Positions 45,120-63,428 of a DNA stretch of 64,000 nucleotides are shown one piece after another. Source of the stretch: Aliikangiella coralliicola. GTDB lineage: Bacteria; Pseudomonadota; Gammaproteobacteria; Enterobacterales; Kangiellaceae. The position numbers and the translations under genes were made by a program. The notes under the pieces are model-generated. The model saw only the letters and a list, made by a program, of their open reading frames with translations, did not search any database and was not told the origin of the DNA. The stretch lies in the NCBI RefSeq assembly GCF_007004725.1, contig NZ_ML660165.1, positions 1 to 64,000 on the forward strand. The letters are read 5' to 3'. Positions within the stretch are counted from its first letter, which is position 1; each line of letters starts with the position of its first letter.

Positions 45120-48100
45120 ATTTTCTGTGCCTGTTTTATTAAATCGCCGCCACAAAATAATTAATACGAAAAAGATGAGTGCCGCAAAAATAACACTTCC
45201 ACCACCGCTGATAACCGCAGTTTCCAGACGCGTATTAGATAAAGGTTGCAATCGATCCGGAACATTATCAAAGTTATCGTCACCGGGCTCTTGCTCGTCC
45301 GGAATTTCATCGCCGTCGCTATCTACATCCTGAAAATCGGGCGCGCCGTCGCCATCAGTATCAGGCACAGCAACAGCTGTCCCGGCAACACCATTTACGA
45401 CGTAATTATCAACAATATCAACCAAACCGTCTCCATCCATATCTGTCACCGCGTCAAGTACACCATTACCATCGGCGTCAGAATCTGCTGGCGCGCCGCC
45501 TTCAATTAAATCGCTAATACCGTCACTATCGCTATCAATGTCAAGGTGGTCAGGAATACCATCGTTGTCGGTGTCAACGATAGCCAAGTCAATCACATCA
45601 TCAAATCCATCCCCATTGGCATCTGCAAAATTATCAATCATGCCATCGTTATCTGTGTCGAGCCCTTCGGCTTCCATCACGTCGGTAATGCTGTCATTGT
45701 CCGAATCTCGGTCGAGTTGATTAGCAATACCATCGTTATCCGAATCGATGAGTGTTGTATCCACGTTGTCGTCTAAGCCATCGCCATTGCTATCAATAAA
45801 TCCGTCAATCACGCCATTGTTATTGGTATCAGGACCACCACTTTCATGGGCATCACTGATGCTGTCATTGTCGCTATCAAGGTCGCTGATATCTGCAACA
45901 TTATCTTCATCAAAATCAGGTAGCGCTCGATTATCATCAATGCCATCACTATTGGTGTCAGCGCCGCCAGTTTGGTCGACATCGAAATAATCATCGACAC
46001 CGTCGCCATCAGAATCAACCCCACTGATTTTTGCTTCGCTGGTATCGAGAATTCCATCGTTGTCGGTGTCCAGATCCCGATAGTTTGCAACCCCATCGCC
46101 GTCAGTATCAACCAGACCTTCCAGGAAATCAGGTACACCATCCACGTCAGCGTCACTGCCTGGGTCGAGGTAGTCAATTTCGCCGTCGCTATCGATATCT
46201 GCCGGGCTGACATTATCGTCAATGCCGTCATTGTTGGCATCGACTCCACCGGTTTGATCAACATCGAAATAATCATCGATACCATCGCCATCGGTATCGA
46301 CTCCGATAGGGCCACCTTCCAGGTGATCTGGGATTGTATCGTTGTCGGCATCGGTATCCAGATAGTTGGAAATGCCATCGCCGTCATTGTCATCAAGTCC
46401 CTCATGAAAATCTGGTACGCCATCTCGATCAGCATCGCTTCCCGGATCCAGGTAATCAATTTCGCCGTCATTGTCGACATCAGGCAATATTATTGTGTCG
46501 TCAATTCCATCGCTGTTGGCATCCACACCGCCAGTCTGATCGACATCAAAAGTATCATCGATACCATCACCATCACTATCAACACCGCTAACGCCGCCTT
46601 CTGCGCTATCTGGAATTCCATCATTATCCGCGTCAGTATCCAGGAAGTTAGGAATACCATCACCATCGGCATCATCAATTCCCTCAATCGCATCCGGTAT
46701 CCCGTCGCGATCAGCGTCACTACCGGGATCGGTATAATCAAGTTCGCCGTCTCCGTCTCGATCAATCGGCAATATCGCATCATCAACACCGTCACCATTG
46801 GCGTCGAAACCGCCAGTCTGGTCAACATCGAAGGCATCATCAATTTCATCACCATCTGCGTCATTACCGGTGGCGCCGCCTTCATAAAAATCAGGAATGC
46901 CATCATTGTCGGAATCAAGGTCGAGATAATTCGGGATACCATCACCATCTGAATCCGTTACAAATTCAATCGCATCAGGAATGCCATCGTTATCAGAATC
47001 TCTATCAAGATAATTGGGGATGCCATCATTATCGGTATCAATGGTGCCTTCCACAGAATCAAGAATGCCATCGTCATCGCTATCAGGATCGAAGAAGTTG
47101 ACTTGAGCGTTGTTGGCAATTGCAGCACCATCGAAAGTACCTGAAACCGTAACAACTTCAACCACAGAATTGACCAACAGTGCGCTATAGGTTCCATCAT
47201 TGTTATCGGTAACCGGACTCAACTGAGCACTTCCCGTTGATGACAAAATTACAATGCCGCCGCCGCTAGTTAAATTGTTACCCTGGGCGTCTTTCGCTTG
47301 AACCGTGATGGTCGATTCACTGTTTCCATCCGCCGCTACATCAGTAGGCGCAGCAGCAATGGTAGTGGCTCCCTGACCAACCGCACCGGGTGTAAAGGTC
47401 ACCGTAGCCTGATTGGTCATGTTATTCGAATTGATGGTTCCGGTAACGGTGACCACTTCACTGACAGTATTAGTCACAGTGGCCGTATACGAACCATTTC
47501 CATTATCAGACACCCCGCTTAATAGCGCGCTACCAGTAGACGCCAACACGACAGTATCACCACCGGTCGTCAGATCATTACCCTGACTGTCCTTCGCCTG
47601 AACCGTCACCGTCGATAGGCTGATTCCATCTGCAGTAACACTGGCCGGCACAGCATTGATAGTCGACTGGATACTGTCGGCGCTTCCCGCTACAAAAGTA
47701 ACTAGAGCGTTGTCAGTAATCGGCATGCCGTTAAGTGTTCCATTGATCGTTACCGGTTCGGCGACAGTATTGGAAATCGTTGCGGAGTAGGTGCCGTTTG
47801 CATTATCAATAACTGCAGTTAAACTCGCGCTTCCTGTCGCGGTAAGCACGACAGTATCACCACCAATTGCCAGGTTGTTACCTTGCGCGTCTTTGATCTG
47901 AACAGTAATTGTTGAAATACTCGTGCCATCAGCGGTGACTGTCGTTGGCGAAGCGGAAATTGTGCTGGTTGTTGCATCGGGCGCACCGGCGACAAAGGTC
48001 ACCATCGCAGCATCAGTTATCGCAGTGCCATTGAGCGTTCCGTTGACAGTTACAACTTCTGCAACGGTACTGGTAAGTGTAGCGGTGTAAGTGCCGTCTC

Positions 48101-51100
48101 CATTATCAGTCACCGCGCTTAAAGTTGCACTTCCAGACACTGTCAACACCACAGTATCGCCGCCAGAAGACAAATCATTACCTTGAGCATCTTTAACCTG
48201 CACTGTCACGGTAGAAACGCTAACGCCATCTGCGGTCAAGTTGCTCGGTGACGCATCAATCGTCGTTTGTGAAGCATCAGGACTACCAGAGGTAAAGGTG
48301 ACCACAGCATTATCAGTGATGGCACTTCCGTTAACCGTTCCGGTCACCGTCACAATTTCAATAATCGAATTTGTCAGGGAGGCTGAATAAGTTCCGTCAC
48401 CATTGTCAATGACAGTGCTAAGCACCCCGCTTCCTGTCACGGCTAAAGTGACAGTATCACCACCGCTGCCCAGGTTATTACCTTGCGCATCGATGAGCTG
48501 AACAGTAATCGTTGAAATACTTGAGCCATCCGCAACAACCGTTGTGGGTGCCGCATTAATGGTCGTTAGCGTTGCATCGGCTGGACCTGCAGTAAAAGTA
48601 ACCATCGCATTATCTGAAATTGCTGCGGCATTGACTGTCCCAGTGATGGTGACCATTTCAGCTACTGTGTTTGTCAATGTAGCGGAGTATGTCCCATTGC
48701 CATTATCAGAGAGCACGCCCAGACTAGCGCTGCCGGTCACTGCCAGAACGACAGTATCACCACCAGTAGCTAAGTTATTTCCCTGAGCATCTCTTAACTG
48801 CACAGTGATGGTGGAAACACTCACCCCATCAGCAATGAGGGTTGTTGGAGTCGCAGTAATTTGAGATTGTCCACCATCAGCTGCGCCTGGCACAAAGTTC
48901 ACAGACGCATTGTCCGTGATGGCACTACCATTAATTGTGCCGGTGACCACCACCATCTGCGCCACACTGTTAACGATAGTTGCCGTGTAACTACCGTTAC
49001 CATTATCAGTCACCAGACTGATTGAAGCACTGCCTGTCGCAGCAAGTAACACTGTGTCGCCACCTGTTGCGAGATTGTTGCCTAGCGCATCGATGGCTTG
49101 CACCGTAATCACTGACGTACTAACACCATCGGCAGTCACTGTTGACGGCGCTGCGCTAATAGTTGTTTGTCCGGCGTCTGCGATGCCAGGAATAAAAGTG
49201 ACAATTGCGTTATCGGTAATGGCGCTGGCATTTATAGTGCCGGTAACTGTAACGACCTCGGCAATAACATCTGTTAATGTTGCGGTATAGGTTCCGTCAC
49301 CATTATCAGTCACAGAACTCAGATTAGCACTACCGGTCACAGCGAGTACCACACTATCTCCGCCACTTGTCAGATTGTTTCCTGACGCATCAATGGCTTG
49401 TACAGTCACCGTTGCGGTGTTAGCACCGTTTGCAGTAACAATAACCGGCGCGGCACTAATCGTTGTTTGAGCCGCGTCTGCAGTACCTGGGACAAAAGTC
49501 ACAACGGCAGTATCGGTTATCGCGGCAGCATTTATCGTCCCACTCACAGTCACCGCTTCAGCGACGGTATTGGTTAGCGTGGCCGTGTAACTGCCATCGC
49601 CATTATCAGTTACAGCGCTTAAGGTTGCGCTGCCGGTAACAGATAAAACAACGGTATCACCACCAATTGTCAAATCATCACCGTTAACGTCTTTCGCTTG
49701 CACGATGATGGTTGAAATGCTCACGCCATCCGCAGTGACGCTTGTTGGCGCAGCATCAATCGTTGTGGTTGTTTCATCTGCAGGCAGTAAAGTCGCCATA
49801 GTCAATATGGCGCCATCGGCGAAATCGATTGCGGCGGTCCATAAATTACCAGAGCTATTGGTTAACGCGACAGGCGTCTCATCAGATAGATCAAGATCAG
49901 CATCGCTGTCGTGGACAATAAAGTAAGTAGTGCCAGCAAGTAAATCAGGTATATCAAAATCGGCATCACCCACATCCAGTTGAATATTTATCGCAGCGAC
50001 GGTTCCAGTTTCGTCAACTTTCCATACACGAGACAATAAGTTGTAGCCGGTGGGCGTTCCGGACGTTGTCCAGCTAGCGGCTCCATCATCATTACCAATA
50101 ATAATGTAATTACCATCACCAAGCGCAGTGCGACCAGCATCCTGATTACTGGATACAAAATCATTATCGCTCGCCAAAGTCAGGACAGCATCTGCATTAG
50201 TTGATTTTGAAATTTTCTGATTTAATGCTGAATCGTCGTCCTCCCCAATACCAACAATATCATTCCAATAACTGACATCGGTCCACACATCAACCCCAGC
50301 GCTATTCTTGTAGGCTACAACTGACGAATCCAGAGTAATTCCGTACTTTATTGCTAGATAACTTTCAATTTGCTGTTTGTCCGTGCCGGCGGCGGTGTCT
50401 TGGTTAAATGCCACTAGTTCAGCTAAAGAACCATCGTATCTTGTTGAGCAACAACCTTGCTCTCGTCCACCTAAAAATACGATATCCGAAGGGTTAGTTA
50501 GCGGGGCGACAAGGGTTCCGGTGTTAATCTGCAATCCATTGCCAAATGTGGTGACGTCAAGATCAGAGCGCCGCACAGTATGCAGTATCGCGGAACCAAC
50601 ACCGTCAGCCCCATTGACCTGGGTGAAACCTGGTCCACTGGCATCGGAACTAAGATAATTGCCCTGCGCAGATACTGACGGCCCAATCAGTCCTGCCGAA
50701 GTAATATTTTGCGCGAATATGGCTTCACTATTGTTGGCCAGTGTCACCAGGTAAAAGCTTTGCTTATCAGTGGTTAATTCATGATTAGGGAAAATAACCC
50801 CAGAATACCGCATTAGGTCATCAACACCGTCAAAAGTGACCGTTGGATTAAAGTTGAGCATCGTGCTAGTAGCGTCTGGTTCAGTAGCACCAGCCACATT
50901 GACAAAATTAAAGCTATTCCCTGACTGATCAGCCCAACCGGTTACCGCGGCACCGCCGGTAACACCAGCATCAGCTTTTAGCCACACCATTAAGGTCGCA
51001 TCAACTCCACCGGGACCATCGGCGAAAATGACAAAGGCGGTATCAATAATTGGTGTCGCATTGAGCGTTCCGGAAACGGTCACTCCTTCAGCAACAGCAT

Positions 51101-54100
51101 TGGTCATGGTTGCAGTATAAGTTCCATCACCATTATCAGTGACGGTGCTTAAACTGGCGCTGCCTGTCACTGAGAGCACGACGGTTTCGCCACCGGTGGT
51201 GAGATCATTACCCTGGGCATCTTTTACCTGCACGGTAATGGTTGAAACGTTGACGCCATCAGCAGCTAAAATTGCGGGAATGGCATCAATGGTGGTTTGG
51301 GTCGCACTTGGTCCTCCCGGAACAAAAGTCACTATCGCATTATCGGTAATCGCTACTGCGTTAATCGTGCCGGTCACAGTTACTGCTTCAGCCACGGTAT
51401 TAGTCATCGTGGCAGTGTAAGTTCCATTGCCATTATCGGTCACCGAACTTAAACTGGCGCTGCCGGTAACAGCCAACACCACTGTATCTCCGCCAGCAGT
51501 TAAATTATTGCCTTGGGCATCAATCGCCTGAACTGTAATTGTTGATGTACTTACGCCATTGGCAGTCACCGTGGCCGGCGCTGCATTGATATTTGTTTGG
51601 GTTGCGTCAGCGGCACCGGGCACAAAAGTGACCACCTCGTTATCGACAATTGCTACTGCGTTCAGCGTACCAGTAATGGTCACAACCTCGGCGACAGTAT
51701 TAGTCAACGTTGCAGTATAGGTGCCATCTGTGTTATCAGTTACCGTGCTTAAACTCGCGCTGCCTGTCGTCGATAAAATCACCGTGTCACCGCCAGCGGT
51801 CAGATTATTTCCGAGAGCATCTCTTACCTGAACGGTAATTGTTGAAGTGGTTACACCATCAGCGGTAACACTGGTTGGTGCCGCGGTAATCTGTGTTTGA
51901 GCAGGACTGGCGACGCCCGGTGTAAAGGTCACCACCGCATTATCGGTGATCGCCGCGGCGTTAATTGTACCAGTCACAGTCACCACTTCGGCTACTGTAT
52001 TAGTCACTGTTGCCGTATAAGTACCGTCGCTGTTGTCAGTGACAATGCTTAAACTTGCACTTCCGGTTACTGAAAGTACCACAGTGTCACCACCGACCAC
52101 TAAGTCACTTCCCAACGCATCTTTCGCCTGCACAGTAATGGTTGAAATTGAAACGCCATCAGCAGTCACGCTGGTTGGTGAGGCATCAATGGTTGTTTGT
52201 GCAGCCGATGGCACATCAACAATATCGTTAACATTAATGGTCAGATTTTCGTCGTAGACTTTACCACCATTGGTTTCAGTCACACGGACGCAAATCTGAT
52301 AGGCATTATCCGTGTTATTGTCCACAGGGGTTTCAAAATCGAATACGGTGGTATTTCTTAAACTAGTGCCCAAAATGTTAAAATGACCATCATCAACACC
52401 GGCAACAGCACATGCCAGACTGTAACTATAACTTTGCGGATTATTTTCCCCATCGTCAGTATTTGTCAGCGTACCGATAACACTGTTAGCAACCACCCTT
52501 TCATCCAGGCTGTCGGTGTTACCACCATCAATATCAATATTGGTTGGCGCGGCATCAAGATCATTAATTGTTATCGTCAGGTTTTCATCGTAGGTTTCAC
52601 CACCAATGTCAGTACTACGAACACAAATTTCGTAAGTGCCGTCAGTGTTATTGTCAGCAGGGTTTTCAAAATCAAAAACACTGGCGGACTGCAGATTACT
52701 TCCTGAAATCTGGAAGCTTGCATCATCGGCCCCTGGGGTCGTGCAGCTCAGCGCGTAAGTATGAATATCGTTAAAATCTGGATCAGTACTGGTGAGTACC
52801 CCAATATTGGTTCCACTGACTTCATTTTCATCAATCGTATCACTATTTGCGCCATCAATTTGAATATCGGTGGCAGGGCTACAAACGCGACCATTATCAT
52901 TAATCGTCCAACTATCGCTCGCGATCATATTGGCTCTTGCTGCTTCAGCTGTACAATATTCAAGATTCGTAGCGCCCAGTGTCACTCCCGACTGCAAAGT
53001 TTGCGCATTCCAGCCAATCAGAGTCGCGTCATAATTACTCGTGGACAAATTCGAGTTGTTCAACATATTGACCGCATTGGTTAACGAACTAACAGTCCAG
53101 GCTCCAAGGCTTTGATTAAAAACATTTGTATTAGCAAACATATACTCGAAAGTCGTTACATTGCTAACATCCCAACTAGAAAGATCTTGATCAAAACTGT
53201 CTGCATTTCGGAACATATTACTGGTATCGAGAACATTTCCAACATTCCAGCCACTTATGTCTTGGTTAAATACCCACGCACGGCGGAACATTGTATTCAT
53301 GTCGGTAACATTACTAACATTCCAACCACTGATATCTTGATTAAAAACATCTGCGGCAAGAAATAAGCTGGCCATGTTTAAAACATTGCTAACATTCCAC
53401 CCGCTAATATCCTGGTTGAAGCTCTCTGCGTTGCTAAACATAGCTGACAGGTCAGTAGCACTCCCAACATTCCAACCACCGATATTTTGATCAAAGACAA
53501 GGGCATCTCTGAACATATTTGAAAAATTGCTCACATTGGCCACATTCCAGGAACTGATATCTTGGTTGAAAATACTCGCGCCACGAAACATACTGCTCAT
53601 ATTTGTGACTGTTGATGTGTTCCAGCTACTAATATTCTGGTTGAGCGCAGCGGCGTTATAAAACATGCCAGATAAATCAGTCAACGCAGAAAGATCAGGT
53701 ACATCGCTGGCGTTAACAACTAGATTGGCGGCGCCAAAAAAAGCATTTGCCATACTCGTCCAGGGATTACTTCCCCACTGTTCAACTGAAAGAATTTTTA
53801 AAAAGTCGCCATTATTGTTGAAATAAATTCTGGGGAAAGTTCCAGTAATGGTAACGGTATAAGTTCCCGCGCTGGCATAAGTATACGTGGTGATTCCGGT
53901 AAGTCCGGTACTGAAAGTCCCATCTCCCCATTCCACAGAATAGTTGTAGCCACCTCCAGTAGTGGGGATCCTTATTTGAGTGCTTGTTGATATACCGGGA
54001 TTATCGGTTTTCCAAGTGGTTATAAACGCTAATTGAACCGTGGCGTTGACCGAGGTAGCAGTTGATGTGTTACCTGCCGGATCGGTTGCAGTCGCATCAA

Positions 54101-57100
54101 TGGTGACAGCTCCGGGCGACGGTGTGGGCGATAAGTCACAACTCCAGGTACCATCGCCGGCAACTGCCGCCTGGCAAGTTTCCCCGGTTCCCTGTACTGT
54201 AGCAGTAATGGTATCGCCGGGAGTTGCACCGCTGCCACCAACAGTACCGTCAGTAGTACCGCTGGCAGCCGGGTAGTCAACAGTTGGGGCAGGTGGTGCC
54301 ACGGTATCAATGGTAACGGCTAGCGCCGGTGACTGGCCCGATTCATTGCTCGAAGTATCTGTCTCGCTGTAGGTGATGTTGTGAACCGTCGAAGCGAGAG
54401 TATTTGCTGTCGCTGTTTCAGTTCCAACCCCCACGCAAACATGCGTCCCGATATTGGTATTCGGCGCCGGGCTATCACTATAAAGAGTGATCGTGGAGCC
54501 AGCCTCGGTACATACCACGTCAAAACTGGGTGTTGTATCGTTGGTAATATTATCCGTGTCACTACTACCGGTATCTGAAGCTGCCTGTAAATCAGGTGCA
54601 GCTGCGGGCGTCGCTGGTGGCGTATCGTCCACATTGTTAACGCTGATGGTCAGGTTTTCATCATAATTGAGCGCGCCGTCAAATACTCGCACACAAATGT
54701 CATAGATATTATTGCCGCCACTATCCACCGGCACTTCAAAATCAAATACCGTACTGTTTCTTAAGTTAGAACCATTAATATTAAAGTGACTGTCGTCAGC
54801 ACCCGCCACCGTGCAAGTCAGACTATAAGTGGGTGATGTATTTTCGCCGTCATCTACCGTCGTTAAAACACCTATCACGGTGTTAATTGCCAAATTCTCG
54901 TCAATAGAATCGCTATTGCCACCATCAACTGCAATATCCGTGGGTGCGGTATTCAGGTTATTAATGGTGATTGTCAGGTTTTCGTCATAGGTCAAACTAC
55001 CGCTGTCAGTGCTACGAACACATACTTCGTAAGTGCCATCAACATTAGCATCTGTCGGCACTTCAAAATCGAAAACAGCGTTTGATTGTAATTGCGCGCC
55101 GCTGATTTGAAACTGGCCGTCATCGGCACCGGCAACGGCACAAGCAAGAGAATAGGTATGACTATCTCCGGCGTTGGGATCACTGCTGGTCAGGGTACCG
55201 ATGTTAGTGCCAGAAACAGCGTTTTCGTCGATAGTGTCGCTGTTGCCAGCGTCGATTTGAATATCTGTGGGTGCGGTATTAATTTGCGTGGCAAGGGTGA
55301 ATAAAGCCCCATCTGCAAGATTAATGGCAACTGTCCATAAGTTGCCGGCACTGTTAGAGAGCACGATTGGTGTTTCGTCGGCCAGACTTTGATCGCCGTC
55401 GGTATCATGAACTAAATAATAGACTGGCCCAAAAGTTAAACTGGGGACATCAAAATCGGCATCACCTACATCGAACTGGAGATTAATCGTACCGACTGTG
55501 CCAGTTTCTTCTATTTTCCAACGACGGGTTAACAGGTTAAAAATCGCAGGGGAATCAGTTGAGGTCCAGGTGGCTGCACCATTGTTGTTGCCAATAATCG
55601 CGTAATTACCGTCACCTAAGGCCGTTCTCCCACCGTCAAGATTCGATGAAGTAAAATCATTATTGTTCGCCAGAATAATGATGCTGTCTGCATTATTTGA
55701 TCGTGAAACTTTTTGATTGAGTGTTGAGGTGTCGTCTTGTCCAATCCCAAAAACGTCGTTCCAGTAGGTTGCGTCCGTCCAGATATCGGTACCTGCGCTA
55801 TTTTTATAAGTGGCAGCAGACGAGTCTAAAGTTAAACCATATTTAAGCGCTAAATATGACTCCACCTGATTTTTTTGCGTCGCAGTTAATGTCGTGTCAT
55901 AAACAATAATTTCTCCGACTCCACCAACAAAATAACGATTTAAATTACTACCCGAATGGTTGTGCCCACCCACTCTGGAATAACCAATATTGATCGCACC
56001 AGCTGTAAATGTATCCGAGTTGGTCGCCCCCCCATCCTGACCGATGAATCCAGTGTTTCCTGCTCGACTTGAGTAAAATAATGAAACCTGATCAACAACA
56101 ACGCTTCCAGCGACCGCATCAATTCTGTTACTTGCTCCCCCATTATTCTCCAGAAAAAAATTCGGTAACGAACTGGAATTAAGCCCTACGTGACCTTCTA
56201 AAACACCAAAGTCGCCAAAACCATTAAAATCGCCGGCATCTGTATTAGATTCATTCCAGTAATAAATTATTTTGTTACCCGAAACTTCCTTAAAACGCAC
56301 CATAGTAAAAATCGTATAGTTAGCGTTGCTGTCCAGATTTGGCAGGTTGCCCGTGAACTCCAGATAATCAATAGAACCCTCGTTATCACCTCTAAACTCA
56401 ACCGCGGGATTGAAGTTAGTTGCGACGCTGGCATTTAGTGTGTAGTAAGGCTGATTGCTAGCTGTTCCCTGGGTTGCGTTAACCGCGCCACCTGATTGAT
56501 CATTCCATGAAGAAATATTGCTGCCTTCTACCGTTGTTGAGGTACCTGCGTCAGCTTTTAACCACATGCTCAGATTATTTATTACGCCCCCAGGCGCGCT
56601 AAACAGAAACGACACAGCGGCATTATCGGTAATCGCCGCTGCGTTAATGGTCCCGGTAACTGTCACCGCTTCCACGACGGTATTAGTCAAAGTGGTGGTA
56701 TAGGTGCCGTTACCATTGTCAGTGACGGAACTTAAACTTGCGCTTCCGGTTACTGCCAAACCGACGGTATCGCCACCGCTGGTAAGATTATCACCGTTAG
56801 CATCAACTGCCTGAACCGTAATGGTTGAAGTGGCGACCCCATCTGCCAATACCGTTGTTGGCGCGGCCGTAATCGTGGTGGTGGTCGCATCTGCCGGTAA
56901 AGCAGTTGCCAGTGAAAAAATCGCACCATCGGCAAAATTAATCGCTGATGACCATAAATTACCCGAGGTGTTTGTCAGTGATACCGGCGTTTCATCAGAT
57001 AGATCAGCATCACCATCACTATCGTGTACCAATAAATAATTTGAACCAGTTAATAACGCCGGAACATCAAAGTCACCGTCGCCCACATCAAACTGAATAT

Positions 57101-60100
57101 TAAGTGAATTAACGGTACCGGTTTCTTCGATTTTCCATTGGCGGGATAAAATTCTATAGTTGGTGGGTGCTCCCGTTGAGGTCCAAGTGGCCGCACCATT
57201 GTTGTTGCCGATTATTGCGTAGTTACCATCACCTAAAGCCGTTCGCCCTCCATCAAGATTCGATGAAGTAAAGTCATTATTGTTTGCCAGAATAACAATA
57301 CTGTCTGCATTATTTGAGCGAGAAACTTTTTGGTTGAGTGTTGAGGTATCATCCTGACCAATCCCCAAAATATCGTTCCAGTAGGTCGTATCCGTCCAGA
57401 TATCGACACCTGCACTATTTTTATAATTGGCGGCAGACGAGTCTAAAGTTAAACCATATTTGAGCGCTAAATATGACTCCACCTGATTTTTTTGTGTCGC
57501 AGTTAAAGTCGTGTCATAAACAACAATTTCTCCAACACCGCCGACAAAGTAATGGCTTAAACTACCATCACTACGATTGTGCCCACCTACTCTCGAATAT
57601 CCAATATTATCCGACCCACCTTGCGGCGAATTGGCAGAGTTGGTTGAGCCACCGTCGACTCCAATATAGCCATCATTTCCGGAACGATTCGCGTAAAGCA
57701 GAGAGACCTGATCAGCAATCACAACGCCATTGTTCACTTCGATTCGATGGCTAGACGCACCGTTCTGAAGAAAAAGATTAGGTTCAGAACCTGACTCTAG
57801 ACCAATGTGACCTTCCACAACCTTATTACTTGTTCCATAACCATCGTATCTGCCGCTATCCGAATTAGTGTCATCCCAGTAATAAATAATTTTACGCTCG
57901 CCAACCTCATTGAATCGGACCAGGGTAAAAATAGTGTAATTGCTATTATTTTCCAGGTTGGGTAAATTCCCGACGAATTCCAGGTAATCAATTGACCCTT
58001 CGTTATCTCCTCGAAATTCAACCGCAGGATTAAAATTAGCCGCAACACCAGAGCTTAAGGTATAGTAAGGTTGGTTTGCGCTTACTCCCTGCGTCGCGTT
58101 AACAGAACCGCCGGACTGATCTGTCCATGACGAAATATTGCTTCCCTCTACCGTTGTTGAAGTACCCGCATCGGCTTTAAGCCACAACTGTATATTGGGA
58201 ACCACCCCGCCGGGGCCGCTAGACAGAAAAGTCACTGCTGCATTATCAGTAATCGCCGCCGCGTTAATAGTGCCGGTAATCGTCACGGCCTCGGCAACAG
58301 TATTGGTAAGTGTCGCAGTGTAAGTGCCGTCACCATTATCGACCACCGAACTTAAACTCGCACTGCCTGTCACGGCCAATAAAACAGTATCACCACCAAT
58401 TATCAGATTATGACCGTTAGCATCTTTGGCTTGCACGGTAATAGTTGAAGTGCTGGTTCCATCAGCAAGTACACTGGTCGGCGCCGCGGTAATCGTAGTG
58501 TTGGTGGCGTCAGGTGGTAACTCTGTCGTGACTGAAAGCGCTGCAAGAGAAAAAATTGCACCATCGGCTAAATTCACCGCAGTTGACCATAAATCACCTG
58601 AGGTATTCGTTAAAATAACCGGGGTTTCATCGGATAAATCTGCATCACCATCAGTATCATGCACTAAATAATGGTCGGCTCCAGCTGTTAACCCAGGAAC
58701 GTCAAAATCCCCATCGCCTACATCAAATTGGATATTGAGCGAACCGACAGTACCTGTTTCTTCTATTTTCCATTGGCGGGATAAAATTCGGAAGTTAGTC
58801 GGTGCGCCGGTTGATGTCCAAATGGCTGCGCCATTGTTATTACCGACTATCGCATAGTTGCCATTGCCTAAGGCCGTTCGTCCTACATCAAGGTTAGATG
58901 ACGTAAAATCATTGTCATTCGCCAAAGTAACAATCGCATCAACTTCAATCGATTTCGAAACTTTCTGATTGAGTATCGAGGTATCATCCTGACCCAAACC
59001 AAAGATATCATTCCAGTAACTCACATCAGTCCAAACGTCAGCACCAGCGCTGTTTTTATAACTGGTAATGGTGGTGTCGAGTGTGATCCCGTATTTAATA
59101 GCTAGATAAGAATAGATTTGTTGGCTATAAGCACTAGTGACATTGGTATCATAAACGATAACCTCGGCAAGACGACCATCCATTTGGTTGCCGCCACCAG
59201 TCGTTGATAAACTGTCGCCTATCAACATTGTCGTAAAACTGTTGATATCTCCATCAAAATCATCAACAGAGTAACTCGCGGTACCATCCAACTTTGCATC
59301 AAGTCGAGTTGTAAATGTATTGCTTCCACTCCGCTGCAGGCTGCCAATATAAGCGATCCCAACTGATAGAAATTCAGCAAAATCAGTAGACTCACCGTCA
59401 ATTTGAGTCCGTTGAACCTCTCGATTACGCCCACCAAACGAGAAATCGTTACTTCCCAGGTTGCCGATAAAGCTATTGTCGTCTGATACAATATCTAATT
59501 CATAAACGACAAACATGCTAAAAGTGCCAGAACCTGGAATATTCAGATTATCTGCAATACTCATGAAAGTTCCGGTCGGCTCTGCGCCATCAAAATCCAG
59601 TCCCGGATTGAAATTGATCGATGGACTAATCAAAGCCGGTTGAACCGATCCAGTTCCCTGAGTTGCGTGATTAGTGTTACCACTTTGGTCATCCCACTGA
59701 CTGACACTACCACCGCTTTCGGTAATACCCACATCAGCTCTAAGCCACAGTTGTATATCGGAAACCACCCCGCCAGGGCCGCTAGACAGAAAAGTCACTG
59801 CTGCATTATCAGTAATCGCCGCTGCGTTAATCGTGCCGGTAATCGTCACGGCCTCAGCAACGGTATTGGTAAGTGTTGCAGTGTAAGTGCCGTCACCATT
59901 ATCTGTCACTGAACTTAAACTCGCACTGCCTGTCACGGCCAATAAAACAATATCACCACCAATAATCAGGTTATGACCGTTAGCATCTTTGGCTTGCACG
60001 GTAATAGTTGAAGTGCTGGTTCCATCAGCAAGTACACTCGTCGGCACCGCGGTAATCGTAGTGTTGGTGGCATCAGGTGGTAATTCTGTCGTGACTGAAA

Positions 60101-62177
60101 GCGCTGCAAGAGAAAAAATTGCACCATCGGCTAAATTCACCGCAGTTGACCATAAATCACCTGAAGTATTCGTTAAAATAACGGGGGTTTCATCGGATAA
60201 ATCTGCATCACCATCAGTATCATGCACTAAATAATGGTCGGCTCCGGCTGTTAACCCCGGAACATCAAAATCCCCATCGCCTACATCAAATTGGATATTG
60301 AGCGAACCGACAGTGCCCGTTTCTTCTATTTTCCACTGGCGGGATAAAATTCGGAAGTTAGTCGGTGCACCGGTTGATGTCCAAATGGCTGCGCCATTGT
60401 TATTACCGACTATCGCATAGTTGCCATTGCCTAAGGCCGTCCGTCCTACATCAAGATTAGATGAGGTAAAATCATTATCGTTAGCCAACACCATAATGCT
60501 GTCTGAACTACTTGAACGCGAAACTTTCTGATCCAGTGTAGAAGTATCGTCTTGGCCAATCCCAAAAATATCGTTCCAATAACTCACGTCTGTCCAGATA
60601 TCAACGCCGGCACTATTTTTATAACTGGTTGCCGATGAACTTAAAGTCACGCCATACTTAAGCGCAAGATAGGATTCGATCTGATTTTTTTGCGTCGCTG
60701 ACAAAGTGGTGTCATAAACAATGATTTCTCCGATTCCACCAACAAAGTATCGACTTGTGCTGCTGCTTGAAGCGTTGTGCCCACCCACCCTGGAGTAACC
60801 GATATTAAGTGCTCCTCCGGTAAAGGTATCAGAACTGGTTGCTCCACCATCTTGCCCGACGAATGCGGTGTTGCCGGCCCGGTTTGAATAAAACAATGAA
60901 ACCTGATCGGTTACAACACTACCACTAGAAACATTAATTTCATTACTCCCCGACCCATCATTCTCGAGGTAAAAATTAGGTAGTGAGCCTGATTCCAATC
61001 CAACATGGCCTTCTAAAATACCAGTATCACCAAAACCATTGTAATCACTAGTGTCGATATCAGCTTCATTCCAGTAATAGATAATGTGACGTCCGCCGAC
61101 TTCTTTGAGTCTGGCTAAAGTAAAAATGGTGTAATTGCTATTACTGTCCAGGTTAGGTAAATTGCCTGTGAACTCCAGGTAATCAATAGAACCTTCGTTA
61201 TCACCTCTAAACTCAACCGCGGGATTGAAGTTAGTTGCGACGCTGGCATTTAGTGTGTAGTAAGGCTGATTGCTAGCTGTTCCCTGAGTTGCGTTAACTG
61301 CGCCACCAGATTGATCATTCCATGAAGAAATATTGCTACCTTCCACTGTTGTTGACGTACCTGCGTCAGCTGTTAACCACATGCTCAGATTATTTATTAC
61401 GCCGCCAGGCGCACTAGACAGAAACGACACAGCGGCATTATCGGTAATCGCCGCTGCGTTAATTGTCCCCGTAACTGTCACGACCTCCACAACGGTATTA
61501 GTCAAAGTGGCTGTATAGGTACCATTACCATTGTCAGTTACTGAACTTAAACTCGCGCTTCCGGTTACTGCCAAACCGACGGTATCACCACCGCTGGTAA
61601 GATTATCACCGTTAGCATCAACTGCCTGAACCGTGATTGTGGAAGTGCTCACACCATCGGCCAATACCGTTGTTGGTACCGCGGTAATCGTGGTGGTGGT
61701 TGCATCTGCTGGTAAAGCAGTTGCCAGTGAAAAAATGGCACCATCTGCAAAATTAATCGCTGCTGACCATAAGTTACCTGAAGTGTTCGTCAGTGATAAT
61801 GGTGTTTCATCTGACAGGTCAGCATCACCATCACTATCGTGTACCAACAAATAATTTGAACCGGTCAATAACGCTGGTACATCAAAGTCACCATCACCTA
61901 CATCAAATTGAATGTTGAGTGAACCAACCGTGCCGGTTTCTTCAATTTTCCATTGGCGGGATAAAATGCGGAAATTGGTTGGTGCACCTGTTGAGGTCCA
62001 AGTGGCCGCGCCATTATTGTTGCCGACAACTGCATAGTTACCATTTCCCAATGCTGTTCGACCAACGTCCTGATTGGTCGATGAAAAATCATTGTCGTTG
62101 GCCAGAATAATGATCCCGTCTGAGTGATTCGAGCGCGAGACTTTCTGGTTCAGTGTTGAGTCGTCATCCTGACCCAC
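43938..62177 (-). CDS. Giant modular surface protein fused to an OmpA-type domain, 3' part of a gene split by a TAG
   Basis: The open frame codes for 6079 residues, but its GTG start at 62177 is not a real gene start. The frame runs on upstream through a TAG at 62196-62198 into the signal-peptide ORF. Modules in order: the rest of lectin-like (LamG/DUF8202-type) unit 1, then four invasin-type Ig domains alternating with units 2-5. Two cadherin-like and two Ig-like domains follow. A PKD-like turn, BspA/DUF285 repeats and two more cadherin-like domains come next, then four Ig domains, unit 6 and nine Ig domains. The end is an Asp-rich TSP3-like region, a membrane segment, and an OmpA barrel plus peptidoglycan-binding domain. 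It is probably a calcium-stiffened adhesin. Without the upstream ORF it has no export signal. Confidence 0.85.
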   Translation of the reverse strand: MGQDDDSTLNQKVSRSNHSDGIIILANDNDFSSTNQDVGRTALGNGNYAVVGNNNGAATWTSTGAPTNFRILSRQWKIEETGTVGSLNIQFDVGDGDFDVPALLTGSNYLLVHDSDGDADLSDETPLSLTNTSGNLWSAAINFADGAIFSLATALPADATTTTITAVPTTVLADGVSTSTITVQAVDANGDNLTSGGDTVGLAVTGSASLSSVTDNGNGTYTATLTNTVVEVVTVTGTINAAAITDNAAVSFLSSAPGGVINNLSMWLTADAGTSTTVEGSNISSWNDQSGGAVNATQGTASNQPYYTLNASVATNFNPAVEFRGDNEGSIDYLEFTGNLPNLDSNSNYTIFTLARLKEVGGRHIIYYWNEADIDTSDYNGFGDTGILEGHVGLESGSLPNFYLENDGSGSNEINVSSGSVVTDQVSLFYSNRAGNTAFVGQDGGATSSDTFTGGALNIGYSRVGGHNASSSSTSRYFVGGIGEIIVYDTTLSATQKNQIESYLALKYGVTLSSSATSYKNSAGVDIWTDVSYWNDIFGIGQDDTSTLDQKVSRSSSSDSIMVLANDNDFTSSNLDVGRTALGNGNYAIVGNNNGAAIWTSTGAPTNFRILSRQWKIEETGTVGSLNIQFDVGDGDFDVPGLTAGADHYLVHDTDGDADLSDETPVILTNTSGDLWSTAVNLADGAIFSLAALSVTTELPPDATNTTITAVPTSVLADGTSTSTITVQAKDANGHNLIIGGDIVLLAVTGSASLSSVTDNGDGTYTATLTNTVAEAVTITGTINAAAITDNAAVTFLSSGPGGVVSDIQLWLRADVGITESGGSVSQWDDQSGNTNHATQGTGSVQPALISPSINFNPGLDFDGAEPTGTFMSIADNLNIPGSGTFSMFVVYELDIVSDDNSFIGNLGSNDFSFGGRNREVQRTQIDGESTDFAEFLSVGIAYIGSLQRSGSNTFTTRLDAKLDGTASYSVDDFDGDINSFTTMLIGDSLSTTGGGNQMDGRLAEVIVYDTNVTSAYSQQIYSYLAIKYGITLDTTITSYKNSAGADVWTDVSYWNDIFGLGQDDTSILNQKVSKSIEVDAIVTLANDNDFTSSNLDVGRTALGNGNYAIVGNNNGAAIWTSTGAPTNFRILSRQWKIEETGTVGSLNIQFDVGDGDFDVPGLTAGADHYLVHDTDGDADLSDETPVILTNTSGDLWSTAVNLADGAIFSLAALSVTTELPPDATNTTITAAPTSVLADGTSTSTITVQAKDANGHNLIIGGDTVLLAVTGSASLSSVVDNGDGTYTATLTNTVAEAVTITGTINAAAITDNAAVTFLSSGPGGVVPNIQLWLKADAGTSTTVEGSNISSWTDQSGGSVNATQGVSANQPYYTLSSGVAANFNPAVEFRGDNEGSIDYLEFVGNLPNLENNSNYTIFTLVRFNEVGERKIIYYWDDTNSDSGRYDGYGTSNKVVEGHIGLESGSEPNLFLQNGASSHRIEVNNGVVIADQVSLLYANRSGNDGYIGVDGGSTNSANSPQGGSDNIGYSRVGGHNRSDGSLSHYFVGGVGEIVVYDTTLTATQKNQVESYLALKYGLTLDSSAANYKNSAGVDIWTDTTYWNDILGIGQDDTSTLNQKVSRSNNADSIVILANNNDFTSSNLDGGRTALGDGNYAIIGNNNGAATWTSTGAPTNYRILSRQWKIEETGTVNSLNIQFDVGDGDFDVPALLTGSNYLLVHDSDGDADLSDETPVSLTNTSGNLWSSAINFADGAIFSLATALPADATTTTITAAPTTVLADGVATSTITVQAVDANGDNLTSGGDTVGLAVTGSASLSSVTDNGNGTYTTTLTNTVVEAVTVTGTINAAAITDNAAVSFLFSAPGGVINNLSMWLKADAGTSTTVEGSNISSWNDQSGGAVNATQGTASNQPYYTLNASVATNFNPAVEFRGDNEGSIDYLEFTGNLPNLDSNANYTIFTMVRFKEVSGNKIIYYWNESNTDAGDFNGFGDFGVLEGHVGLNSSSLPNFFLENNGGASNRIDAVAGSVVVDQVSLFYSSRAGNTGFIGQDGGATNSDTFTAGAINIGYSRVGGHNHSGSNLNRYFVGGVGEIIVYDTTLTATQKNQVESYLALKYGLTLDSSAATYKNSAGTDIWTDATYWNDVFGIGQDDTSTLNQKVSRSNNADSIIILANNNDFTSSNLDGGRTALGDGNYAIIGNNNGAATWTSTDSPAIFNLLTRRWKIEETGTVGTINLQFDVGDADFDVPSLTFGPVYYLVHDTDGDQSLADETPIVLSNSAGNLWTVAINLADGALFTLATQINTAPTDIQIDAGNSDTIDENAVSGTNIGTLTSSDPNAGDSHTYSLACAVAGADDGQFQISGAQLQSNAVFDFEVPTDANVDGTYEVCVRSTDSGSLTYDENLTITINNLNTAPTDIAVDGGNSDSIDENLAINTVIGVLTTVDDGENTSPTYSLTCTVAGADDSHFNINGSNLRNSTVFDFEVPVDSGGNNIYDICVRVFDGALNYDENLTISVNNVDDTPPATPAAAPDLQAASDTGSSDTDNITNDTTPSFDVVCTEAGSTITLYSDSPAPNTNIGTHVCVGVGTETATANTLASTVHNITYSETDTSSNESGQSPALAVTIDTVAPPAPTVDYPAASGTTDGTVGGSGATPGDTITATVQGTGETCQAAVAGDGTWSCDLSPTPSPGAVTIDATATDPAGNTSTATSVNATVQLAFITTWKTDNPGISTSTQIRIPTTGGGYNYSVEWGDGTFSTGLTGITTYTYASAGTYTVTITGTFPRIYFNNNGDFLKILSVEQWGSNPWTSMANAFFGAANLVVNASDVPDLSALTDLSGMFYNAAALNQNISSWNTSTVTNMSSMFRGASIFNQDISSWNVANVSNFSNMFRDALVFDQNIGGWNVGSATDLSAMFSNAESFNQDISGWNVSNVLNMASLFLAADVFNQDISGWNVSNVTDMNTMFRRAWVFNQDISGWNVGNVLDTSNMFRNADSFDQDLSSWDVSNVTTFEYMFANTNVFNQSLGAWTVSSLTNAVNMLNNSNLSTSNYDATLIGWNAQTLQSGVTLGATNLEYCTAEAARANMIASDSWTINDNGRVCSPATDIQIDGANSDTIDENEVSGTNIGVLTSTDPDFNDIHTYALSCTTPGADDASFQISGSNLQSASVFDFENPADNNTDGTYEICVRSTDIGGETYDENLTITINDLDAAPTNIDIDGGNTDSLDERVVANSVIGTLTNTDDGENNPQSYSYSLACAVAGVDDGHFNILGTSLRNTTVFDFETPVDNNTDNAYQICVRVTETNGGKVYDENLTINVNDIVDVPSAAQTTIDASPTSVTADGVSISTITVQAKDALGSDLVVGGDTVVLSVTGSASLSIVTDNSDGTYTATVTNTVAEVVTVTGTINAAAITDNAVVTFTPGVASPAQTQITAAPTSVTADGVTTSTITVQVRDALGNNLTAGGDTVILSTTGSASLSTVTDNTDGTYTATLTNTVAEVVTITGTLNAVAIVDNEVVTFVPGAADATQTNINAAPATVTANGVSTSTITVQAIDAQGNNLTAGGDTVVLAVTGSASLSSVTDNGNGTYTATMTNTVAEAVTVTGTINAVAITDNAIVTFVPGGPSATQTTIDAIPAILAADGVNVSTITVQVKDAQGNDLTTGGETVVLSVTGSASLSTVTDNGDGTYTATMTNAVAEGVTVSGTLNATPIIDTAFVIFADGPGGVDATLMVWLKADAGVTGGAAVTGWADQSGNSFNFVNVAGATEPDATSTMLNFNPTVTFDGVDDLMRYSGVIFPNHELTTDKQSFYLVTLANNSEAIFAQNITSAGLIGPSVSAQGNYLSSDASGPGFTQVNGADGVGSAILHTVRRSDLDVTTFGNGLQINTGTLVAPLTNPSDIVFLGGREQGCCSTRYDGSLAELVAFNQDTAAGTDKQQIESYLAIKYGITLDSSVVAYKNSAGVDVWTDVSYWNDIVGIGEDDDSALNQKISKSTNADAVLTLASDNDFVSSNQDAGRTALGDGNYIIIGNDDGAASWTTSGTPTGYNLLSRVWKVDETGTVAAINIQLDVGDADFDIPDLLAGTTYFIVHDSDADLDLSDETPVALTNSSGNLWTAAIDFADGAILTMATLLPADETTTTIDAAPTSVTADGVSISTIIVQAKDVNGDDLTIGGDTVVLSVTGSATLSAVTDNGDGSYTATLTNTVAEAVTVSGTINAAAITDTAVVTFVPGTADAAQTTISAAPVIVTANGANTATVTVQAIDASGNNLTSGGDSVVLAVTGSANLSSVTDNGDGTYTATLTDVIAEVVTVTGTINASAITDNAIVTFIPGIADAGQTTISAAPSTVTADGVSTSVITVQAIDALGNNLATGGDTVLLAATGSASISLVTDNGNGSYTATIVNSVAQMVVVTGTINGSAITDNASVNFVPGAADGGQSQITATPTTLIADGVSVSTITVQLRDAQGNNLATGGDTVVLAVTGSASLGVLSDNGNGTYSATLTNTVAEMVTITGTVNAAAISDNAMVTFTAGPADATLTTINAAPTTVVADGSSISTITVQLIDAQGNNLGSGGDTVTLAVTGSGVLSTVIDNGDGTYSASLTNSIIEIVTVTGTVNGSAITDNAVVTFTSGSPDASQTTIDASPSNLTADGVSVSTVTVQVKDAQGNDLSSGGDTVVLTVSGSATLSAVTDNGDGTYTATLTSTVAEVVTVNGTLNGTAITDAAMVTFVAGAPDATTSTISASPTTVTADGTSISTITVQIKDAQGNNLAIGGDTVVLTATGSASLTAVIDNANGTYSATISNTVAEPVTINGTLNGMPITDNALVTFVAGSADSIQSTINAVPASVTADGISLSTVTVQAKDSQGNDLTTGGDTVVLASTGSALLSGVSDNGNGSYTATVTNTVSEVVTVTGTINSNNMTNQATVTFTPGAVGQGATTIAAAPTDVAADGNSESTITVQAKDAQGNNLTSGGGIVILSSTGSAQLSPVTDNNDGTYSALLVNSVVEVVTVSGTFDGAAIANNAQVNFFDPDSDDDGILDSVEGTIDTDNDGIPNYLDRDSDNDGIPDAIEFVTDSDGDGIPNYLDLDSDNDGIPDFYEGGATGNDADGDEIDDAFDVDQTGGFDANGDGVDDAILPIDRDGDGELDYTDPGSDADRDGIPDAIEGIDDADGDGIPNFLDTDADNDGIPDSAEGGVSGVDSDGDGIDDTFDVDQTGGVDANSDGIDDTIILPDVDNDGEIDYLDPGSDADRDGVPDFHEGLDDNDGDGISNYLDTDADNDTIPDHLEGGPIGVDTDGDGIDDYFDVDQTGGVDANNDGIDDNVSPADIDSDGEIDYLDPGSDADVDGVPDFLEGLVDTDGDGVANYRDLDTDNDGILDTSEAKISGVDSDGDGVDDYFDVDQTGGADTNSDGIDDNRALPDFDEDNVADISDLDSDNDSISDAHESGGPDTNNNGVIDGFIDSNGDGLDDNVDTTLIDSDNDGIANQLDRDSDNDSITDVMEAEGLDTDNDGMIDNFADANGDGFDDVIDLAIVDTDNDGIPDHLDIDSDSDGISDLIEGGAPADSDADGNGVLDAVTDMDGDGLVDIVDNYVVNGVAGTAVAVPDTDGDGAPDFQDVDSDGDEIPDEQEPGDDNFDNVPDRLQPLSNTRLETAVISGGGSVIFAALIFFVLIILWRRFNKTGTENMFVFLVFVSFSGALMWSENVHGFDDATKASQTFQYRDKEFSGFKPEWYAGIGFGASYVDPKGESNGWYTDDDASEGYKFYLGYQLSPHWNIELGYVDAGEAGLSNVNVFVDAQLNEPGIKYQIPSLMANYYFREATDNWNYYVKFGGAAISNSSTHDEILFEKQTSAQFAAGLGSHWRFSKNWFIRAELDYYAKDASYASLQIGTFLGEPNSEKNKSYFSPPKRDIARVSETTATPQPIPQKQLRDKQSHQDKVNKKIVKKAKRICERTSHELEDEFDCVVTTILNDRISFNKNSSVLTTSATHVLDRIAESLKLYPRIKVSIEAHTDNSGTDTYNLFLSHRRAIAVVSYLFKKGISINRFKSSGFGEVKPIADNNTKEGREKNRRVEIKQLP
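45130..45215 (-). other. Membrane segment with GlyGly-CTERM-like form inside the giant protein
   Basis: VISGGGSVIFAALIFFVLII followed by LWRRF has the Gly-rich/hydrophobic/basic pattern of a GlyGly-CTERM tail, but it is internal and not terminal. It separates the adhesin part from the OmpA module. Confidence 0.6.
45230..47095 (-). repeat. Thrombospondin type 3-like Asp-rich repeat region
   Basis: About 620 residues of repeating units such as DSDNDGIPD, DADGDGIPN and FDVDQTGGVDANSDGIDD. Aspartates at fixed spacing are typical calcium ligands. The DNA is strongly repetitive and opens long meaningless frames on the other strand. Confidence 0.9.
47100..49790 (-). repeat. Nine tandem invasin-type (Big_1) Ig domains
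   Basis: Each of about 100 residues follows one pattern: TTIxAAPTxVTADG, STITVQAKDAQGNDL, GGDTVVL, SDNGDGTYTATLTNTVAEVVTVTGTINGxAITD. Such domains form a stiff rod in intimins and invasins. Eight more occur elsewhere in the protein (four at 51010-52215 and four between the lectin-like units). Confidence 0.85.
53060..53790 (-). repeat. BspA/DUF285-type repeats in the giant protein
   Basis: About nine repeats of 24-25 residues with the core SFNQDISGWNVSNVTNMxxMF. This leucine-rich-like family is common in mycoplasma, Bacteroidetes and gut-associated surface proteins. It is preceded by a PKD-like turn (VEWGDGTFS) and followed by DATLIGWNAQTLQSGV, the usual capping motif. Confidence 0.85.
55300..61410 (-). 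repeat. Four lectin-like units alternating with Ig domains, near-identical at DNA level
   Basis: Units of about 430 residues start GGVxxxxxMWLxADAG and hold a LamG-like part, IGEIIVYDTTLTATQKNQ, ESYLALKYG, IWTDxxYWNDIFGIGQDD and RQWKIEETGTVGSLNIQFD. Each pair is separated by a Big_1 domain. Blocks at 58205-58920 and 59765-60480 are almost identical, as are 56340-56640 and 61140-61445. Confidence 0.8.
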
Positions 62178-62195
62178 GCCAAAAATATCATTCCA

Positions 62196-63053
62196 CTAGG
62201 TTGTGTCTGTCCAAATATTAGAACCACCGCTGTTCACGTAATTGGTAACTGAGGTCGGCAAGGTCATACCATATTTGAGCGCCAGGTAACTTTGAACCTG
62301 ATTGATTTCGTTCGCAGGTAAGGTTCGCTCAAATATGGCAACTTCCATAATATCGCCATCGAAACTATCGTTTGCATCGCGTCCGATACGATATGCACTT
62401 GCACCGTTATCACCATCAATCCCTAAGGTCTCAGTGTCGCTAGCCGAAACATTCGATACACTTTCAGTGAATGTGTAAGTCGCGCCATCGTAATATGAAG
62501 TTAACAGCATAGGGGCGCCGGCAGTAGGAATATTTACGCTGAGCCCATCTGCAACAAATACCCATCCAAACGTGCTATCTCGAATGACAATGGATGTCCC
62601 GCTATTAAATATTCCGAACCGGTGATCGCCTGAAGCGTCGTCAGTGGCAAAGGTGAAAAAATCATCGACGCTGTCGACAACATTGTCTTGCTGCATCACA
62701 AAAAAGGTTGTCAGTGTCGTGGTATCATCCACTCCCAGACCGTCCGGCCCTTCAAGATAATCTCCATCGGTTTGAGTTGTTGCATTGAATTCAACTGACG
62801 GGTTGAAGTTCATCTTATTAGAAATAAAGGTGGGTTGCTCTGTACTGCTTGCCTGGGTGCCGTTTTTCGCATTTGGAGACTGATCAGCCCAACTGCTAAT
62901 ACTGCCTCCACTCTCGGTAATACCAGCATCAGCTTTCAGCCATAATTGCAAATTGGTTTCAACGCCGCCAGGACCGGCTGCTTGTATCAATAAGGAATGT
63001 GTAATTAAAAGCCACAAAAAAAAGTGACAAAAAACTTTTACTGCCCTTTCCAT
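62196..63053 (-). CDS. N-terminal part of the giant surface protein, ending at an in-frame TAG
   Basis: This 285-residue ORF starts at ATG 63053 with GGGA upstream. It has a signal peptide (FFLWLLITHSLLIQAA) and then the first lectin-like unit (GGVETNLQLWLKADAGITES, EVAIFERTLPANEINQ, SYLALKYGMTL). It ends NIWTDTT then TAG, then continues in the same frame with WNDIFGVGQDDD. In all five other units this position reads YWND, so TAG has replaced a tyrosine codon by one base. The product alone would be a small secreted lectin-like fragment. With the TAG read as Tyr, the gene spans 43938-63053 (about 6,371 residues). Nonsense mutation, suppression or sequencing error are all possible. Confidence 0.85.
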   Translation of the reverse strand: MERAVKVFCHFFLWLLITHSLLIQAAGPGGVETNLQLWLKADAGITESGGSISSWADQSPNAKNGTQASSTEQPTFISNKMNFNPSVEFNATTQTDGDYLEGPDGLGVDDTTTLTTFFVMQQDNVVDSVDDFFTFATDDASGDHRFGIFNSGTSIVIRDSTFGWVFVADGLSVNIPTAGAPMLLTSYYDGATYTFTESVSNVSASDTETLGIDGDNGASAYRIGRDANDSFDGDIMEVAIFERTLPANEINQVQSYLALKYGMTLPTSVTNYVNSGGSNIWTDTT

Positions 63054-63428
63054 ATAATTCCCATGTCAAATCCACAACTTCAAACAACCAACGATTCTGA
63101 AAATCAGTTTTAATGTTTTTATTTATTGGAAGTACTTCCGTTTCAACTCTGATTGAGTATAGAAAAAATATTTAGGCAAAAACAAAAAACGAAAAAATTG
63201 CATCGAAAAACACAGGTTTCAAGAAAAAACCTCAGAAAAAAATCTCAAAACGAGAACTACGAATTAAATCTGAATGAGCTGAAATAATTTTTAATAATCA
63301 CAGCTCAAATTATTAGAATTAAAAAATATTTTTTTAGAGTATTAGATTTTAAGGCTAGGAGATTAGCCAAGGATAACCTTAAACTCAGCGGAAGTTCATA
63401 CGAGTTAATGCTTGTTATTTATTAGTGT
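63054..63428. other. AT-rich leader region of the giant gene
   Basis: The stretch between the PilZ and giant genes is very A/T-rich with poly-A runs. No confident promoter hexamers or ORF were identified. Confidence 0.4.

What the first reader, a model, noticed from the sequence alone, without database searches (positions are those of the whole stretch)
62177..62210. In-frame TAG splits a 19-kb surface-protein gene at a conserved tyrosine
Seen: the signal-peptide ORF (62196-63053) and the 18-kb ORF share one frame and are separated by a single TAG. The five other copies of the module read YWND where this one reads *WND. A one-base change from TAC or TAT explains it. Inference: the giant protein is either silenced, made by amber suppression or readthrough, or intact with a sequencing error here. 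If real, the downstream 6,079-residue ORF lacks an export signal.
Basis: seen in the sequence. Interest (0 to 1): 0.8.

Follow-up and report, generated by a model that had tools for sequence, protein, structure and literature searches.

The report
Nonsense codon in giant surface-protein gene
A bacterium carries a gene for a gigantic surface protein that looks intact except for one early stop signal, most likely a recent inactivating mutation (or a sequencing slip), which is an ordinary event in an unusually large gene.

Summary
Confirmed: the minus-strand frame 63053..43938 (6,372 codons) has one internal stop, TAG at 62196-62198, at a column where all five sister modules have tyrosine. It is one gene, not two: the stop lies inside a repeated module, no plausible start was found in the next 414 codons, and four cousins with the same C-terminal plan, in three of the seven genus genomes held, are single uninterrupted frames. 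The 158 codons after the stop show no clear decay: 81 of 83 module-invariant positions kept, dN/dS 0.04-0.07 against modules 2-4. No second stop exists, so any silencing is young (about 0.5% neutral divergence or less). No amber-suppressor tRNA was found, but the tRNA set is incomplete. TAG ends 8 of 26 window ORFs checked. Folding after the stop is no better than shuffles. Best reading: a recent nonsense allele silencing the giant protein in the sequenced clone. An assembly error is the main rival; no reads and no second strain with the gene were available. In relative G001 the flanking MATE and PilZ genes lie side by side without it.

The parts
62196..63053 (-). 5' piece: signal-peptide-like start plus first part of module 1 (LamG / concanavalin A-like), 285 codons, ended by TAG
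   Evidence: weak PF13385 match, E 0.00036, 21.1 bits against cut-off 27.6
62196..62198 (-). in-frame TAG at a column that is Tyr in 5 of 5 sister modules
43938..62195 (-). rest of the same frame: end of module 1, modules 2-6, Invasin_D3/Big_1 repeats, DUF285 (PARCEL-type) repeats, cadherin-like stretches (below cut-off), Asp-rich TSP3-like repeats (my reading), OmpA-type barrel and OmpA domain
61722..62195 (-). part of module 1 after the stop (158 codons); still matches its sisters
   Evidence: 81 of 83 invariant positions kept; dN/dS 0.04-0.07 against modules 2-4
45081..45260 (-). Gly/Ser-rich motif, hydrophobic helix and basic residues (GlyGly-CTERM-like, just below cut-off), then the start of a second hydrophobic stretch before the barrel
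   Evidence: TIGR03501 14.3 bits against cut-off 15.5; hydropathy
43941..45038 (-). OmpA-type beta-barrel and OmpA peptidoglycan-binding domain
   Evidence: PF13505, PF01389, PF00691, all over cut-off
42448..43785 (-). flanking MATE transporter; in G001 its counterpart lies beside the PilZ gene
   Evidence: PF01554
63429..63767 (-). flanking PilZ-domain gene upstream
   Evidence: PF07238

Best explanation
One gene of about 19.1 kb encodes an exported surface protein of about 6,370 residues (signal peptide, lectin-like modules, Ig-like repeats, outer-membrane barrel with peptidoglycan anchor). In the sequenced clone a recent single-base substitution turned the tyrosine codon of module 1 into TAG. 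Translation stops after 285 residues, leaving at most a secreted lectin-domain fragment; the giant surface protein is not made, or only in trace amounts. Shown: the single stop, its position in a conserved motif, the absence of a second stop, unrelaxed sequence after the stop, and uninterrupted cousins of the same C-terminal plan. Inferred: that the base is real, that termination is efficient, and that the protein is a surface adhesin or scaffold.
For: Exactly one internal stop in 6,372 codons. Tyr in 5 of 5 sister modules; of four outside loci that reach the column, two have Tyr and two Phe (L122-L124 lined up by eye). Sequence after the stop keeps 81 of 83 module-invariant residues; dN/dS against M2, M3, M4 is 0.04, 0.05, 0.07. 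No further stop bounds any relaxation at about 0.53% neutral divergence. Among the first 414 codons after the stop, the one start codon with a ribosome-binding-like motif (TTG, 60998) opens onto no hydrophobic signal. Four cousins with the same C-terminal plan are uninterrupted ORFs of 2,191-2,685 aa. TAG ends 8 of 26 window ORFs checked. No CTA-anticodon tRNA among 40 tRNAs. GC3 of the gene (0.36-0.44) is near that of 18 other window ORFs (0.39), so it does not look like fresh foreign DNA.
Against: No second genome with this gene was found: the N-terminal piece has no match in 40 relatives and the module none in 39 other family genomes. So nothing shows that the base is really in the organism. 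One of six relative-rate comparisons leans to faster change in module 1 (13 against 4, p 0.049, outgroup M5). Overall GC of the gene (0.40-0.50 in 1.5-kb steps) is mostly above the 0.43 of the other ORFs. Gene conversion between modules could hide decay.
Confidence: 0.66

Rival explanations
1. Consensus or assembly error: the organism carries no stop there and makes the intact giant protein.
For: A lone lesion in an otherwise open 19-kb frame is what an error would look like. The 5.9-kb contig C17 with the Ile and Ala tRNAs suggests a draft assembly with collapsed rRNA operons, and the gene is repetitive.
Against: The site is not in a collapsible repeat of the gene: the nearest 21-mer that recurs within the gene (same strand) starts about 230 bases downstream, none upstream. 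In the own genome a 601-base query over the site matches five other places, all at 66-76% identity. Substitution errors in a finished consensus are rare (general knowledge).
Confidence: 0.2
2. Leaky or regulated readthrough of the TAG: a short secreted lectin domain as the main product and a little of the giant protein.
For: Unrelaxed sequence after the stop and no second stop.
Against: No CTA tRNA found. RNA after the stop folds no better than shuffles (z 0.11). TAG is an ordinary stop in the window. None of the four outside loci read at the column has a stop.
Confidence: 0.1
3. Two separate genes: a small secreted protein and a downstream giant gene with its own start.
For: Two ORFs in the mechanical list.
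Against: The break lies inside a module that is continuous in five sister copies; the GTG has no ribosome-binding motif and no signal sequence; cousins are single ORFs.
Confidence: 0.02
4. Older decaying pseudogene.
For: A stop early in the gene.
Against: No further stop or frame break in the 6,085 codons downstream; 81 of 83 invariant residues kept.
Confidence: 0.02

Closest known systems
Giant multidomain surface proteins with Invasin_D3/Big_1 repeats (Pfam PF09134, PF02369)
   Same: Signal-peptide-like start, long repeat array, strong Invasin_D3/Big_1 matches
   Different: The module that carries the stop matched no named Pfam family over its cut-off here; the outer-membrane anchor is a C-terminal OmpA-type barrel, not an N-terminal intimin-type barrel (the latter recalled)
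GlyGly-CTERM / rhombosortase substrates (PMC3237569 and PMC13393428, passages seen)
   Same: Gly-rich motif, hydrophobic helix and basic cluster; rhombosortase TIGR03902 in the genome (135.3 bits against 84)
   Different: Here the tail is internal, followed by a second hydrophobic stretch and a barrel; score just under the cut-off in the window, over it in cousin L110
Nonsense alleles of large adhesin genes in other bacteria (recalled, no call)
   Same: Single stop in an otherwise intact giant surface gene
   Different: No population data here

Membership tests
Nonsense (null) allele of one gene | Frame continuous on both sides of one stop | tested here: met
Nonsense (null) allele of one gene | Intact allele in other strains | not testable with these tools
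   no other genome with the gene among 40 relatives
Amber-suppressed or recoded gene | tRNA with CTA anticodon | tested here: inconclusive
   none among 40 tRNAs or at the hits in 35 distinct loci from two CTA-motif patterns; but tRNA-Phe was missed too
Amber-suppressed or recoded gene | TAG not used as normal stop | tested here: not met
   8 of 26 window ORFs checked end in TAG (7 of the 33 ORFs were not checked)
Programmed readthrough | Structured context after the stop | tested here: not met
   z 0.11 for the 100 nt downstream
Programmed readthrough | Stop conserved in homologues | tested here: not met
   no stop in five sister modules or four outside loci; no orthologue was available
GlyGly-CTERM protein (TIGR03501) | Score over the curated cut-off | tested here: not met
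   14.3 against 15.5 bits
GlyGly-CTERM protein (TIGR03501) | Tail at the protein's C-terminus | tested here: not met
   about 400 residues follow the matched stretch
GlyGly-CTERM protein (TIGR03501) | Rhombosortase in the genome | tested here: met
   TIGR03902 over cut-off; over it in 0 of 14 control genomes
OmpA-type outer-membrane protein | OmpA-like barrel and OmpA domain over Pfam cut-offs | tested here: met
   PF13505, PF01389, PF00691

The most novel reading that the evidence does not exclude
The TAG is used rather than suffered: most ribosomes stop after the first lectin-like domain and release it as a small secreted protein, and rare readthrough makes a trace of the roughly 6,370-residue outer-membrane-anchored giant, a dose switch for a protein too costly to make in bulk.
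Probability: 0.06. Interest if true: 0.75.

Novelty: new member of a known kind. Interest (0 to 1): 0.3.

Why it matters
If the base is real, the clone has lost a giant surface protein by one mutation, a reminder that giant genes are large nonsense targets: 1,712 single-base changes in this frame would give a stop. If it is an error, any annotation as two proteins is wrong. The more general point is the shared C-terminal plan of the genus's giant proteins, which could be a polyprotein with an internal sorting tail and an internal signal.

Tried and rejected
Suppressor tRNA: the RF00005 search scored 150 of 434 candidates and gave 40 matches; ARAGORN on 30 loci and 10 fetched stretches that cover all 40 found no CTA anticodon. 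A T-arm plus CCA pattern gave 54 hits (control 16): the same 40, one tmRNA and 13 non-tRNAs. Two CTA-anticodon patterns gave 8 and 29 hits, fewer than their reversed controls (13 and 59), and no tRNA at any hit. tRNA-Phe was never found, so the inventory has a gap.

Hairpin or repeat control of the stop: folding gave nothing; five inverted repeats of 10-13 nt in 61700-63500, the longest 71 bases upstream of the stop. Promoter-like sites around the stop are at chance level (5 found, 4.8 expected); terminator-like sites are 4 against 1.9 (sd 1.3) expected, two of them on the gene's strand inside the 5' piece, not followed up. Independent translation of the barrel: its ATG at 45119 has no ribosome-binding motif in the bases printed upstream.

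Homologue searches: the N-terminal piece gave nothing in genome contigs. The module alignment gave one MAG contig there, nothing in viral contigs, 3 of 393 other genomes of the order, and 3 of 397 others of the phylum (E 1.7e-16, 9.6e-6, 2.8e-4), none of which reaches the stop's column. L113 and L114 were fetched and not examined. Paper searches: Aliikangiella, rhombosortase and GlyGly with barrel gave listings; passages of three papers were seen. Readthrough in adhesins, DUF8202, YeeJ, giant genes and internal signal peptides gave listings with nothing usable or no paper at all.

Full report
Observation. The minus-strand frame from ATG 63053 to the stop at 43938 holds 6,372 codons with exactly one internal stop, TAG at 62196-62198 (codon 286). 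The other five frames of the stretch hold 232 to 746 stops, so this is a real coding frame. Six copies of a module occur; the motif reads YWND in five and *WND in the first. From the motif to the module's end all six copies have the same length, 159 residues.

One gene or two. The stop is inside a repeat unit, not between units: the part before it matches the first part of the sister modules and the part after it matches the rest. The GTG that gives the 6,079-aa ORF its nominal start encodes a conserved aliphatic residue and has no ribosome-binding motif. In the first 414 codons after the stop only one start codon has such a motif (TTG, 60998), and it opens onto no hydrophobic signal. Searching the C-terminal 366 residues across the 7 held genomes of the genus gave matches in 7 of 7, most of them in short frames (under 650 aa) like those of ordinary OmpA-like proteins. 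Four matches lie in other open frames of over 2,000 aa: G002 (2,685 aa, L109), G000 contig 15 (2,423 aa, L110) and two in G005 (2,513 aa, L111; 2,191 aa, L112). All four are single open frames. L109, L110 and L112 begin with a clear signal-peptide-like stretch by eye; L111's is less clear. The window gene is thus one gene of a family of giant exported proteins, broken by one codon. The four are cousins in plan, not orthologues: the repeat regions of the three that were scanned differ from the window's.

Is it decayed? No clear sign. In the 158 codons after the stop module 1 keeps 81 of 83 residues that are invariant in modules 2-6. Leave-one-out controls, whose invariant sets differ, gave 83 of 84, 83 of 84, 83 of 83 and 83 of 94 for modules 2, 3, 4 and 5; module 6 was not run. 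dN/dS against modules 2, 3 and 4 is 0.04, 0.05 and 0.07; against 5 and 6 dS is saturated, and dS against 2 and 3 is above 2, so the ratios are rough. Relative-rate counts (module 1 first) are balanced against M4 with outgroups M2 and M3 (8:8, 7:7), lean to module 1 with M5 (13:4, p 0.049) and M6 (9:4, p 0.27), and against M2 give 11:8 and 5:10. With 1,712 of 57,330 single-base changes leading to a stop, about 5.7 further stops are expected per 1% neutral divergence; none is present, so any relaxed period is below about 0.53% (substitutions only, uniform rates). Gene conversion between modules could blur these figures.

Suppression or recoding. TAG ends 8 of the 26 window ORFs checked, the giant's own 3' piece among the 26 (7 of the 33 ORFs were left out as overlapping, cut by the window edge, or the 5' piece itself). 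No CTA-anticodon tRNA was found among 40 tRNAs or at the CTA-motif pattern hits. The inventory is not complete: tRNA-Phe is missing. RNA after the stop folds like its shuffles (z 0.11).

Error. The site's surroundings are unique in the gene: the nearest recurring 21-mer starts about 230 bases downstream, and the five other matches to the site in the own genome are 66-76% identical, so a repeat collapse is an unlikely cause. No reads were available. The 5.9-kb contig C17 with the Ile and Ala tRNAs suggests a draft with collapsed rRNA operons (inference).

Conservation of the column. Outside the window the motif could be read at four loci: Tyr in L121 (a MAG contig labelled Pacebacteria) and in L122 (G097), Phe in L123 (G130) and L124 (G182) (L122-L124 lined up by eye without gaps). 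An aromatic residue is found in 9 of 9 other copies read (five sister modules, four loci).

Locus history. The N-terminal piece has no match in 40 relatives, and the module none in the 39 other family genomes searched. In G001 the MATE gene (65% identity over 431 residues) and the PilZ gene (47% over 112) are about 0.2 kb apart; in the window 19.6 kb lie between them. The other five genus genomes have no close MATE counterpart (best 28% identity), so the site could not be compared there. The giant gene is a gain in this lineage or a loss in G001. Its GC3 (0.36-0.44) is close to that of 18 other window ORFs (0.39), while its overall GC is mostly higher.

Organism. No tool names it. No conclusion rests on it.

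C-terminal plan. Before the barrel, the window protein and four cousins have (N/P)DRLQ, a Gly/Ser-rich motif with a hydrophobic helix and basic residues, then at once a second hydrophobic stretch (ending in small residue-x-Ala in the cousins, by eye), then a barrel-like part. The barrel passes a Pfam cut-off in the window, L109 and L110; L111 falls short (26.1 against 28.7 bits) and L112 was not scanned. The first element scores 21.4 bits against the GlyGly-CTERM cut-off of 15.5 in L110, 14.3 in the window and 13.8 in L112; L109 and L111 do not match TIGR03501. A rhombosortase is present. Passages of PMC3237569 place this tail at the protein's extreme C-terminus. A possible reading is a polyprotein: a surface part released or anchored through the tail, and a barrel with its own internal signal. 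This is inference.

Verdict. A recent nonsense allele of an otherwise intact giant surface-protein gene is most likely; an assembly error is the main rival; regulated readthrough is not excluded but has no positive support beyond the intact frame.

Noticed in passing
window 45081-45260; L109:7381-7560; L110:9266-9445; L111:9752-9931; L112:8949-9128: Internal GlyGly-CTERM-like tail followed at once by a second hydrophobic, signal-like stretch and an OmpA-type barrel-like part in five giant proteins of the genus; possible polyprotein. One of five passes the TIGR03501 cut-off.
   Followed up: partly
G001 contig 39, 43502-45408 (L174): MATE and PilZ genes adjacent, without the giant gene that lies between them in the window.
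   Followed up: yes
L061 about 1490-1720 (G000 contig 14): Tandem tRNA-like fragments (Thr-like and Lys-like halves by eye) that ARAGORN does not call; looks like a pseudo-tRNA array.
   Followed up: no
window 62269-62281 and 62326-62338: Perfect 13-nt inverted repeat 44 nt apart inside the 5' piece, about 70 bases upstream of the stop; probably chance.
   Followed up: no
window 51351-54950: DUF285 / PARCEL-type repeats, named after Mycoplasma and Listeria proteins, inside a giant protein with an OmpA-type barrel.
   Followed up: no
L121: A contig labelled Candidatus Pacebacteria encodes a 2,362-aa protein with the same module; unusual host for it, or a binning question.
   Followed up: no
G000, whole genome: tRNA-Phe was not found by the family search or the T-arm pattern; assembly gap or unusual tRNA.
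   Followed up: no
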